IMG/VR virus record: IMGVR_UViG_3300021061_000218 | Location: 1-54,421 of that record | Source: a virus | DNA: 54,421 nt | Reading direction: 5' to 3' (one strand) | In this document: positions 44,495 through 47,845 of the stretch, in pieces | Numbering within the stretch: position 1 is the first letter of the stretch | Layout: each line of letters opens with the position of its first letter | Made by a program: the position numbers and the translations under genes | Notes under the pieces: model-generated | Databases searched by the model: none | What the model saw: only the letters and a program-made list of their open reading frames with translations | Told to the model about the DNA's origin: nothing

Positions 44495-45288
44495 GTCCTG
44501 TCGATCTTTCACAGAAACGCTGTTTCGTAGACAAGAGGTTCTATCCGCTCGTCCATCCGGAGACCGGGGAGAGCAAGAAGGGCCCCTCTGTCACCACTAT
44601 CCTGGATTTCGTCCGTGAGAAGGGATTTCTGGACCAGTGGGAAAGCGAATTCATTGAACTGTGGGGAGTCGACGGCTACAAGAAATTCCTCGAAAAGAAA
44701 GCCGCTGAAGGGACCATGCTCCACTCGCTGATAGAGCTCTATCTGAATCGAGTGTTGCTGAAGGACCCCACCCCGATCGAATGGACGGAGGGTATCTCCG
44801 GTTTTGTCTGGAAGAAGTTCCTCAACTTCAAAGCTTGGTTCGAGGAGCATCGACCGAACATCCTCTGGATGGAGCGAACAGTGCAGTCTTGGGAACTTGG
44901 CTACGGCGGGAGGGCAGACCTCGGCCTAGAAATGACCAGGGACACTGACGACTACAAGAAGGGGCAACTCTTCGTCCACGATCACAAGTCATCGAAATCT
45001 GCGACGTCGAAACATCTGGAACAGGATGCAGCCTATATCTACGCCCTGGAAGAAGAGACGGGGCTGAAGTACCACGGAGTTGTAGTGCCGTTTGGAACGC
45101 CGACGAGAAAGGGTTACAAGCCGGTCTACGTGCGCCGTGATGTCCCCTACCAGAAGGGAAAGACGAAGTCTGAATACGAGTATTACCTAGAGGCGTTCCT
45201 CCTGAAAAAGAAGCTCTTCGATCACTACTTCGACGAGATGTTGCCGGAGGATCAGTGGCTGGATGTGTTTGTTACCCCGAAGTTCTGA
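44491..45288 (+). CDS. RecB/Cas4-like PD-(D/E)XK nuclease
   Basis: A 265-residue protein from GTG 44491, overlapping the groES stop (GTGA). The core shows GTMLHSLIELYLN (about residues 70-82), GGRADLGLE, then VHDHKSSKS, where D-x-K is the catalytic pair, and QDAAYIYALEE, the Q-x3-Y helix of RecB-family nucleases. It probably processes phage DNA in recombination or degrades DNA ends. It starts the coupled run nuclease - RNA ligase - Nmad1-like protein. Confidence 0.8.
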   Translation: MSPVDLSQKRCFVDKRFYPLVHPETGESKKGPSVTTILDFVREKGFLDQWESEFIELWGVDGYKKFLEKKAAEGTMLHSLIELYLNRVLLKDPTPIEWTEGISGFVWKKFLNFKAWFEEHRPNILWMERTVQSWELGYGGRADLGLEMTRDTDDYKKGQLFVHDHKSSKSATSKHLEQDAAYIYALEEETGLKYHGVVVPFGTPTRKGYKPVYVRRDVPYQKGKTKSEYEYYLEAFLLKKKLFDHYFDEMLPEDQWLDVFVTPKF

Positions 45289-46196
45289 TGTTCAAGAAGT
45301 ACCCGCACCTTGAAAGATTCGGCACGGATGAAGTGGAGGATATCCAGTTCGGCGAGTGCTATGTCTTCCCGAAGATCGACGGCACGAACGCCCAGCTGTG
45401 GAGCGAAGAGGGATTGCTAAGAGCAGGCAGCCGCAACAGAACGCTATCACTCGACAGTGACAATGCTGGCTTCTGCGCCTATGCGGTCTCGAATCAAAAG
45501 ATTGTGAAATTCTTAGAGAACAATCCACAATTGCGCCTCTTTGGAGAGTGGCTCGTCCCCCACTCGCTTAGGACCTACAGAGAGGAGGCCTGGAGGAAGT
45601 TCTACATCTTTGATGTCGCAACGGTGACAAGAGAGAGCGGAAATGACGAGCAGATCTATTTCATGCCCTACGGAGAGTACAAACCCCTCCTTGAGGCCGC
45701 CGGCCTCGACTACATTCCGGCGCTCTGCAAGATCACGAATGGCACTCTAGAGCAGTTCGAGGAAATGCTAGAGAAGAACACCTTCCTCATTAAGGACGGA
45801 GAAGGATTCGGCGAAGGCATCGTTATAAAGAACTACGCCTTCAAGAACAAGTTCCATCGAACCACCTGGGCAAAGATCATTCGCAATGAGTTCAAAGAGA
45901 CTCACGCTCACGCCTTCCGGTTGGCAGCGATAACCGGACAGAAGCTCCTTGAAGAAGAGATTGCAAAGGAGTTCGTCACGAAGTCTCTTGTGGAGAAGGA
46001 ATACGAGAAGATCAAGCTAGAGGATGGATGGAGCTCGAAGCTCATTCCCCGCCTCCTCAACACCGTCTTCCACAACATCGTGACAGAGGAAACGTGGAAC
46101 ATCTTAAAGAAGTACGAGTCTCCGAAGATCGACTTCAAGATGCTGCGCACCTACACATACAGGGTAACGAAAGAAGTTGCTCCCCATCTATTTTAA
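45288..46196 (+). CDS. RNA ligase, Rnl2-like
   Basis: A 302-residue nucleotidyltransferase. Motif I is PKIDGTNAQLW with the AMP-accepting Lys29; then LRAGSRNR (motif Ia region), RLFGEW (motif III, 84-88), EGIVIK (motif IV, 176-181) and WAKIIRNEFKE (motif V, Lys196). The C-terminal ~100 residues form a helical domain. Such enzymes reseal broken RNA, for example tRNAs cut by host defences. The start overlaps the previous stop (TGATG). A PNKP-type phosphatase is encoded 2.6 kb further on. Confidence 0.88.
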   Translation: MFKKYPHLERFGTDEVEDIQFGECYVFPKIDGTNAQLWSEEGLLRAGSRNRTLSLDSDNAGFCAYAVSNQKIVKFLENNPQLRLFGEWLVPHSLRTYREEAWRKFYIFDVATVTRESGNDEQIYFMPYGEYKPLLEAAGLDYIPALCKITNGTLEQFEEMLEKNTFLIKDGEGFGEGIVIKNYAFKNKFHRTTWAKIIRNEFKETHAHAFRLAAITGQKLLEEEIAKEFVTKSLVEKEYEKIKLEDGWSSKLIPRLLNTVFHNIVTEETWNILKKYESPKIDFKMLRTYTYRVTKEVAPHLF

Positions 46197-46895: not shown

Positions 46896-46919
46896 TAGCA
46901 TTCGGACACGAAGCGAAGG

Positions 46920-46949
46920 AGCGGACAATTGAGAGTCCGCTCTTTTTTT
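46920..46949 (+). terminator. Terminator overlapping a promoter
   Basis: AGCGGAC - AATTGAGA - GTCCGCT followed by CTTTTTTT: a perfect 7-bp stem and T-run that should end the 44.1-46.9 kb transcript. The loop contains the TTGAGA -35 of the next promoter. Confidence 0.85.
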
Positions 46950-46974
46950 GCTATAGTATGTTCACTTCCTAACT
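46929..46974 (+). promoter_or_regulatory. Promoter of the large structured RNA
   Basis: TTGAGA (46929-46934), 17 bp, TATAGT (46952-46957) in extended form TGCTATAGT, seven bases, then CTTCCTAACT (46965-46974), one base from the common motif. Confidence 0.8.
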
Positions 46975-47518
46975 GCTGCCGCCAATGTCGCAATTAAGCG
47001 TTTCATCGGTCCCGCTTTCAGGAAGCTGGCTGTCTCTACAAAGAGAGAGCTGCTGATCTTTGAAAGCACCGGACGCATTGAAAGTGTATTTAAACGGGGC
47101 GTGGCGGAATAGGTAGACGCTAGGAAAATGGGCGGCAGCCGCAAGGCTGTGTCGAGCCTAACGAGTCTCCATCGCCTGCGAGCGCATTACGGTGCCTTCG
47201 CAAGGCTGGAGACATGTAGGGTGACAATACGAGTTTTGGCTTAACGAGGACTGTCCTAGCCCAACAGCGAAAGCACACTTGTTACTCGTCAAATCCCTGC
47301 CGCCCCTATTAAAGAGCCCCGACTCTGGATTCCCGCCCACTGATCAGTTCCCCCCACGGGGGGATCGGGCGGCAGGGAAGGGGCTTCAAAGACCTCCAGA
47401 TGATTCCACTCCTGAGCCACGAAACGTAGATGAGTGGTGACCCGTACATGACGACGGATCCTCCGAATAGGCGGCGTCTGACTGCTGGCGGTGGAATCTT
47501 CGGGGGCCTTCATCCCCC
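46965..47518 (+). ncRNA. ~550-nt structured RNA with a tRNA-Leu-like segment
   Basis: A gene-free 690-base gap starting at a strong promoter. 47096-47120 reads like the 5' part of tRNA-Leu (GGGGCGTGGCGGAA then TAGGTAGACGC: acceptor strand, 3-bp D stem GCG/CGC, GG and A of the D loop). Its acceptor-like GGGGCG pairs with CGCCCC at 47301-47306. A TAGGA/TCCTA pair (47121-47257) sits where an anticodon stem would be but encloses about 130 nt, including CAGCC-GCAA-GGCTG and GTCTCCA/TGGAGAC. A second domain (47316-47382) is a long helix built from GCCCC/GGGGC, TTCCC/GGGAA, GCCC/GGGC and CCCCCC/GGGGGG. A GGGGG/CCCCC hairpin lies near the end. No T-arm or CCA: not a working tRNA. Confidence 0.65.
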
Positions 47519-47590
47519 ATGACTCCCAGGTGGGAGAACTTGCGTCCGGTGTTTTTGCACCTTGTCTTTATTCATTCATTTTCTTTCTCC

Positions 47591-47845
47591 ATGTCTAAGA
47601 AGAAAGTCGAAAAGAAGAAGCCCGCAGTTGCGCAGCCTCCTGTGGCACCCGAGAAGAAGGCTCCTCAGACTCTAGAAGAGCACATCCATTTCGCTATCGA
47701 TGATGAGCTCTTAACGCTCCGTGAGAAGTACAAGATCGACAACGGGTCCATCTTCGCTCTCCAGATCATTCGCAACCAGAATAAGCAGCTCTCCTTCTTC
47801 CTGCGCCAGAGCCAGGTGAAGGCTTCCCAGGTAAATCAGAAGTGA
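47591..47845 (+). CDS. Small Lys-rich protein
   Basis: An 84-residue protein from ATG 47591 (MSKKKVEKKKPAVAQPP). It has a very basic, Pro/Ala-rich N-terminus (1-27), then a helical domain (LEEHIHFAIDDELLTLREKYK, SIFALQIIRNQNKQLSFFL). It could bind nucleic acid through the basic tail. An upstream in-frame ATG at 47519 lies inside the RNA region and is rejected. The stop overlaps the next start (GTGA). Confidence 0.55.
   Translation: MSKKKVEKKKPAVAQPPVAPEKKAPQTLEEHIHFAIDDELLTLREKYKIDNGSIFALQIIRNQNKQLSFFLRQSQVKASQVNQK

What the first reader, a model, noticed from the sequence alone, without database searches (positions are those of the whole stretch)
46965..47518. Large structured RNA containing a tRNA-Leu-like 5' half
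A gene-free stretch begins at a strong promoter and is full of long helices. Within it 47096-47120 looks like the acceptor and D-arm of tRNA-Leu, its acceptor strand finds a partner 200 bases later, and the anticodon-stem-like TAGGA/TCCTA pair encloses about 130 nt. A second domain has four stacked GC helices (47316-47382). The size, phage location and embedded tRNA-like part recall the large ornate phage RNAs (GOLLD, ROOL), though no sequence match is claimed.
Basis: partly seen in the sequence, partly recalled or inferred. Interest (0 to 1): 0.82.

Follow-up and report, generated by a model that had tools for sequence, protein, structure and literature searches.

The report
Uncatalogued tRNA-like RNA in phages
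The window holds a non-coding phage RNA built on a transfer-RNA body without an anticodon arm; it belongs to a widespread family of phage RNAs (over 200 distinct copies found here) that is in neither Rfam nor, as far as could be searched, the literature.

Summary
Window 47095-47307 folds as a nearly complete tRNA-Leu-like body (acceptor, D arm, variable arm, T arm). The anticodon arm is replaced by a long insertion, and a second insertion splits the T loop (TG[66 nt]CAAAT). It is not an isolated curiosity: D-arm and T-arm patterns recover 174 non-redundant relatives with a plain TGCAAAT T loop and about 50-60 with the window's split T loop, nearly all in phages or prophages of many bacterial phyla. 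Acceptor and T-stem pairs covary strongly. A covariance model built without the window finds it at 82.5 bits (E 7e-22). No Rfam 15 family matches, including GOLLD, ROOL, tmRNA, tRNA and group I intron. The two classes differ. Plain members end like tRNAs and often sit in tRNA arrays. Split-T-loop members sit on a helix extended by 10 or more covarying pairs, so they are unlikely to be processed or charged as tRNAs. The GOLLD/ROOL kinship is not supported. Best reading: a tRNA-mimicking domain, with host target unknown, inside a roughly 590-nt transcript closed by a 17-bp long-range helix. Function is inferred, not shown.

The parts
46915..46946 (+). terminator-like hairpin of the preceding gene; overlaps the promoter-like site
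46929..46957 (+). promoter-like site TTGAGA-17-TATAGT with extended TG
   Evidence: 10 of 12; 0.3 expected
46964..47560 (+). presumed extent of the non-coding transcript (ends inferred)
   Evidence: no protein family matches, fold z -3.9, closing helix
47061..47077 (+). 5' strand of the long-range closing helix, partner 47541-47557
   Evidence: 17 bp, 14 Watson-Crick, shuffle maximum 12 Watson-Crick
47095..47307 (+). tRNA-Leu-like domain, split-T-loop class
   Evidence: 82.5 bits, E 6.8e-22 with a model built without the window
47096..47101 (+). acceptor stem 5' strand GGGGCG, partner 47301-47306; after a 2x2 mismatch TTTAA/TTAAA extends it
47102..47122 (+). U8 G9, D arm GCGGAATAGGTAGACGC and TA; identical to the family consensus over 21 nt
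47123..47213 (+). insertion in place of the anticodon arm, including variable arm 47165-47171/47207-47213 (7 bp)
   Evidence: a helix in this position is enriched in the plain class
47214..47221 (+). A47 U48 and T-stem 5' strand GTAGGG (6 bp with 47295-47300)
47222..47294 (+). split T loop: TG (47222-47223), 66-nt insertion with helix ACGAG/CTCGT (47229-47233/47285-47289), CAAAT (47290-47294)
47295..47306 (+). T-stem 3' strand CCCTGC and acceptor 3' strand CGCCCC
47314..47386 (+). GC-rich interrupted hairpin; its segment 47367-47378 could pair 12/12 with 47294-47305 and unfold the tRNA-like domain
   Evidence: domain alone z -1.35
47541..47557 (+). 3' strand of the closing helix, running into TTTTTG

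Best explanation
Shown: 47095-47307 is a member of an uncatalogued family of phage RNAs with a tRNA-Leu-derived body. The tRNA core positions are kept (U8, A14, A15-U48, G18/G19, U54, C56, A58). The anticodon arm is replaced by a variable insertion, the T stem has 6 bp instead of 5, no CCA is encoded and the discriminator is not conserved. The window is in a second class, in which an insertion splits the T loop between G55 and C56 and the acceptor stem continues into a long helix. Inferred: the RNA does not act as an adaptor in translation. The phage transcribes it from its own promoter as a stable RNA that presents a tRNA-shaped core, held on a long helix and carrying extra arms at the anticodon position and the elbow. 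The likeliest use is mimicry: occupying or recruiting a host (or phage) factor that recognises the tRNA core, such as a tRNA-processing, tRNA-modifying or tRNA-attacking enzyme or the ribosome, with the variable arms setting target or partner. Confidence: family membership about 0.97, domain on an extended helix about 0.85 for the class, mimicry as the mechanism about 0.4.
For: Membership: model excluding the window, 82.5 bits, E 6.8e-22; genuine tRNA-Leu genes score 38-41 bits with it and plain-class members 31-63. Unbiased seeding: 147 of 160 T-arm hits have the D arm upstream and at least 6/7 acceptor pairs, against 3% when the 3' strand is shuffled. Covariation: 131 of 174 plain members pair 7/7 and 36 pair 6/7, against 2.6% and 9% for mismatched partners; most acceptor positions take all four Watson-Crick types. 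Split class: 97.6% of cells paired against 80.2% shuffled, 133 double changes against 34. Extended helix: 10 further pairs, 72% paired, each with double changes; flank duplex energy -11.6 against -5.9 for mismatched flanks, while the plain class shows none (-6.4 against -6.2). Not a working tRNA: ARAGORN finds none; CCA encoded in 1 of 174 and discriminator A only 51%. Phage-borne: none of 398 sampled genomes of one bacterial phylum carry the T-arm pattern.
Against: No expression or binding data. No protein or host target is identified, and mimicry rests on conservation of the core alone. The split T loop and the 13-bp acceptor/T stack may not allow a true tRNA elbow. The window phage has no close relatives in IMG/VR by its RNA ligase or RuvC, and one distant relative by TerL, so the outer parts of the 590-nt RNA could not be tested by covariation. 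The window's own acceptor extension is weak (flank duplex -5.3). A 12-bp alternative pairing competes with the domain.
Confidence: 0.55

Rival explanations
1. Processing chassis: the tRNA-like body is cut out by RNase P and RNase Z and protects a cargo RNA held in the anticodon position, as in mascRNA.
For: Plain-class members have stems that end like tRNAs, U enriched at -1 and at 74, same-strand tRNAs within 10 nt in 10 of 174 and within 1 kb in 50 of 174; in Enterococcus phage EFDG1 one starts 2 nt after a tmRNA gene.
Against: The window's class has a helix extended by 10 pairs, no tRNA neighbours within 10 nt and an insertion at the elbow. Good for the plain class, weak for the window.
Confidence: 0.15
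2. Architectural module: the tRNA-like fold is a structural joint in a large RNA that assembles like GOLLD or ROOL, without any tRNA-specific partner.
For: Window domain sits inside a ~590-nt RNA closed by a long helix; L019 has several further long hairpins downstream; extended acceptor helix.
Against: No Rfam GOLLD or ROOL match; strong sequence conservation of the D arm exceeds what a joint needs; plain members are small (about 90-270 nt).
Confidence: 0.2
3. Cis-acting leader or genome-end element of the late operon (antitermination, packaging or cos region).
For: In Bacillota phages the upstream neighbour is often an ArpU/RinA-like late activator (phrog_248 15 of 56, phrog_36 13 of 56), downstream HNH or small terminase; in phiJL-1 it ends 3 nt before the end of the linear record.
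Against: The window copy lies between RNA ligase/exonuclease and RuvC genes, 17 kb from its terminase; EFDG1 and LP-037 copies are elsewhere; split-class neighbours show no late activator among the top families.
Confidence: 0.1
4. The T-loop insertion is a small intron: its removal leaves exactly TGCAAAT, the plain T loop, and a phage RNA ligase could join the ends.
For: TG+CAAAT equals the plain consensus; an RNA ligase gene lies just upstream in the window and relatives lie in loci L098 and L228, both with split members.
Against: Ligase relatives found in only 3 loci (one plain); the split class also differs in its extended stem; no splicing enzyme identified.
Confidence: 0.07
5. A decayed or group-I-intron-interrupted ordinary tRNA-Leu gene.
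For: D arm identical to tRNA-Leu in type.
Against: No group I intron match; family-wide covariation without anticodon arm; non-tRNA T loop; a spliced product would still lack an anticodon arm.
Confidence: 0.01

Closest known systems
Bacterial tRNA-Leu (class II tRNA)
   Same: D arm sequence, U8-A14, A15-U48, G18G19, long variable arm in the window, 7-bp acceptor in the plain class
   Different: no anticodon arm, TGCAAAT instead of TTCRANY T loop, 6-bp T stem, no CCA, discriminator not conserved; split T loop and extended stem in the window's class
tmRNA (transfer-messenger RNA)
   Same: tRNA-like domain whose anticodon arm is replaced by a long structured insertion
   Different: no Rfam tmRNA match, no tag reading frame identified, G3-U70 alanine identity in only 5 of 174, different D and T loops
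GOLLD and ROOL large ornate phage RNAs
   Same: non-coding, structured, in phages; plain-class members often near tRNA genes
   Different: no covariance-model match; tRNA-like core is the conserved part here, whereas GOLLD only sometimes carries a tRNA in its linker (PMC12286853)
Pseudo-tRNA tRNA-Other of Bacillus cereus (PMC3399842)
   Same: tRNA-like element inside a longer non-coding transcript
   Different: it is a host genomic-island element with a Trp anticodon; no sequence relation was tested
mascRNA/menRNA (MALAT1 and MENbeta)
   Same: tRNA-like fold without normal adaptor role, RNase P substrate
   Different: eukaryotic, single lineage; RNase P cleavage untested here

Membership tests
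New phage tRNA-Leu-like family, split-T-loop class | match to a covariance model built without the window | tested here: met
   82.5 bits, E 6.8e-22
New phage tRNA-Leu-like family, split-T-loop class | TGAC[AT]ATACGAGT ... CTCG[GT]CAAAT inside a 6-bp T stem preceded by AT | tested here: met
   47214-47300
New phage tRNA-Leu-like family, split-T-loop class | acceptor stem continued by a longer helix | tested here: inconclusive
   class feature clear; the window has 6 bp, a 2x2 mismatch, then 5 bp, 6 of 8 positions pair; its flank duplex energy is only -5.3, close to mismatched flanks
tRNA-Leu (functional gene) | 5-bp anticodon arm with 7-nt loop, TTCRANY T loop, recognised by a tRNA finder | tested here: not met
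   ARAGORN 0 genes; no tRNA match in Rfam
tRNA-Leu (functional gene) | A73 and 3' end able to take CCA | tested here: not met
   family: A73 51%, CCA encoded 1 of 174; -1:73 paired in 45 of 50 of the window's class. CCA addition after transcription not testable
tmRNA | tmRNA covariance model, tag peptide frame | tested here: not met
   no match; EFDG1 shows the two as separate neighbours
GOLLD / ROOL | Rfam covariance model match | tested here: not met
   no match at gathering score or at E up to 10
GOLLD / ROOL | assembly into an RNA-only multimer | not testable with these tools
   needs native gels or cryo-EM
Group I intron | Rfam Intron_gpI match | tested here: not met
   no match at E up to 10
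RNase P substrate | cleavage at the acceptor 5' end | not testable with these tools
   indirect support for the plain class only

The most novel reading that the evidence does not exclude
Phages of many bacterial phyla share a previously undescribed class of infection-related RNA: an anticodon-less tRNA-Leu core used as a standard mount for variable arms, in two forms, one cut out of tRNA arrays and one (the window's) fixed on a long helix with an arm growing from the tRNA elbow, which mimics tRNA to bind or block a conserved host tRNA-handling factor during infection.
Probability: 0.3. Interest if true: 0.92.

Novelty: new variant of a known kind. Interest (0 to 1): 0.8.

Why it matters
tRNA-like RNAs are well known in plant RNA viruses and as tmRNA, but a conserved, anticodon-less tRNA-like family across DNA phages is not in Rfam and was not found in the papers that could be searched. 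It sits unannotated in cultured phages (Enterococcus EFDG1, Listeria B025 and LP-037, Leuconostoc Ln-9, Lactobacillus phiJL-1 and Lenus), so deletion, RNA-seq and pull-down can be done now. The alignments and the covariance model recipe would let annotators find it.

Tried and rejected
Rfam at permissive thresholds: only chance hits (P2 20.8 bits against a cut-off of 80). DNA similarity in phages: only the D arm aligns. Relatives of the window phage through RuvC, RNA ligase and terminase: none, none, and one distant, so synteny of the outer RNA could not be tested. The rli62/rliG idea: a weak rli62 match in Lactobacillus phage Satyr led to Listeria A118, which carries rliG in the same position but no tRNA-like element. 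Real tRNA-Leu genes and intron-bearing tRNA-Leu genes among the pattern hits (e.g. L022, L130, L138; L141, L149, L197) were set apart. A pseudoknot in the insertion of short plain members is only mildly enriched (at least 5 bp in 40% against 21%), so it is left as possible. Canonical second T arms in insertions are rare (5 of 174, 0.2 expected). Literature: ten searches found no description; the library lacks most subscription journals, so prior publication is not excluded.

Full report
What was checked. The window is a 54,421-base viral record of a tailed phage (large terminase, portal). The reported stretch contains no recognisable protein gene, follows a promoter-like site at 46929-46957, has no tRNA by ARAGORN and no Rfam 15 match at gathering scores or, in 46900-47600, any credible match up to E 10. 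The 601-nt stretch folds better than shuffled sequence, z -3.9.

How the family was found. A distant BLAST search of phage records aligned only 22-23 bases, the tRNA-Leu-like D arm, but those hits were not tRNA genes. They were unannotated intergenic elements in Lactobacillus, Weissella, Brochothrix and Enterococcus phages. Reading them showed a shared plan: 7-nt acceptor strand, TG, GCGGAATAGGTAGACGC, TA, a variable insertion, AT, a 6-bp T stem closing the loop TGCAAAT, and the acceptor complement. A genome-collection scan gave 76 stretches, some of them true tRNA-Leu genes.

Tests against chance and bias. Because the first set was chosen by its D arm, a second scan was seeded only on the T arm: 147 of 160 hits have the D arm upstream and pair at 6 or 7 of 7 acceptor positions, against 3% when the 3' strand is shuffled. 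T8, G9, A14, A15 and A17 are at 147 of 147 there. With no pairing demanded, 174 non-redundant plain members pair 7/7 in 131 cases and 6/7 in 36; mismatched partners do so in 2.6% and 9%. T stems pair 6/6 in 161. A47-U48 is present in 164. A helix ending just before A47-U48, the tRNA variable-arm position, has at least 5 Watson-Crick pairs in 60% against 14% shuffled.

The window's class. D-arm seeding alone already gave 25 members, the window included, whose T loop is split between G55 and C56. A pattern scan for that split loop gave 69 stretches; 61 of 67 non-identical hits have the D arm and acceptor. An alignment of 35 of them without the window gives 97.6% paired cells against 80.2% shuffled and 133 double changes against 34. 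These members had been filtered for at least 6 acceptor pairs, a mild bias. A model from it finds the window at 47095-47307 with 82.5 bits, E 6.8e-22, and nothing else in the record. The constancy of TGACTATACGAGT in that alignment is by selection; among the D-arm-seeded members TGAC is near-constant and the rest varies.

A difference that bears on mechanism. In the plain class the paired stem stops at 7-8 bp, as in real tRNAs from the same loci, flanks do not pair more than mismatched flanks, U is enriched at -1 and 74, and same-strand tRNAs lie within 1 kb in 50 of 174 and within 10 nt in 10. In the split class, position -1 pairs with 73 in 45 of 50, ten further pairs covary, and tRNA neighbours are rare, 3 of 50 within 1 kb. 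So plain members look like tRNA-array products, and split members look like a domain on the end of a long helix. The window fits the second only in part outside the acceptor: GGGGCG/CGCCCC, a 2x2 mismatch, then TTTAA/TTAAA, with flank duplex energy no better than mismatched flanks.

The larger window RNA. A 17-bp helix, 47061-47077 with 47541-47557, encloses the domain and exceeds all 100 shuffles in Watson-Crick pairs. Imposing the family structure costs 5 kcal/mol of 241. The downstream part alone is not significant (z -1.35). The T-stem and acceptor 3' strand (47294-47305) also has a perfect 12-nt complement at 47367-47378, a level reached in about 1 of 100 shuffles, so a switch between two folds is possible; nothing else tests it.

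Setting. In the window the RNA lies between exonuclease and RNA-ligase genes and a RuvC-like resolvase. In Bacillota phages the upstream neighbour is often a late transcription activator and HNH or terminase genes follow. In EFDG1 it lies in a tRNA array, starting 2 nt after a complete tmRNA gene. None of 398 sampled genomes of the phylum of L. brevis carry the T-arm pattern, so it is mainly phage-borne. A CRISPR array in a Peregrinibacteria assembly holds a 26-nt spacer matching the D arm, which shows that hosts meet it as foreign DNA.

Interpretation. That this is a conserved tRNA-derived RNA family is shown. That it does not decode is strongly inferred: no anticodon arm, no conserved discriminator, no CCA. 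What it binds is unknown. Mimicry of tRNA toward a host or phage factor is preferred, because core sequence is conserved across phages of many phyla while arms and acceptor sequence vary freely. The architectural and processing-chassis readings remain open, the latter mainly for the plain class. Novelty is graded as a new variant of a known kind, since tRNA-like RNAs as such are known; absence from Rfam is tested, absence from the literature only within an open-access library.

Noticed in passing
L373 (Enterococcus phage EFDG1 NC_029009) 2476-2823: Unannotated complete tmRNA gene, tag AKNEELLAVA, in the phage tRNA array, 2 nt upstream of the tRNA-like RNA.
   Followed up: partly
L155 (Peregrinibacteria contig JAHFJU010000012) about 2003-2028: CRISPR spacer GGGTGGCGGAATAGGTAGACGCTAGG matches the family's D arm; 25 of 26 identical to the window. 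Repeat looks Cas12a-like.
   Followed up: partly
L380 (Listeria phage A118) 3155-3526: rliG sRNA (RF02415) lies after the late activator, the position where related phages carry the tRNA-like RNA.
   Followed up: partly
L374 3276-3326 and L375 3204-3254: mcrA RNA motif (RF03010) lies about 90 nt downstream of the tRNA-like RNA in Listeria phages B025 and LP-037.
   Followed up: no
window 45255-46196: Phage RNA ligase (PF09414) two small genes upstream of the RNA; relatives in L098 (36% identity, locus also has a split-class RNA), L228 and L084.
   Followed up: partly
L318 insertion; L034 and L102 after the D arm: A tRNA(-like) gene nested inside the insertion of the tRNA-like RNA (tRNA-Lys by ARAGORN in L318; L034/L102 seen by eye).
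   Followed up: no
window 47294-47305, 47367-47378, 47130-47138: The tRNA-like 3' strand has perfect 12-nt and 9-nt alternative complements, hinting at competing folds.
   Followed up: partly
L019 4900-5400 (minus strand): Series of long hairpins directly downstream of a split-class member, suggesting a larger non-coding RNA region.
   Followed up: no
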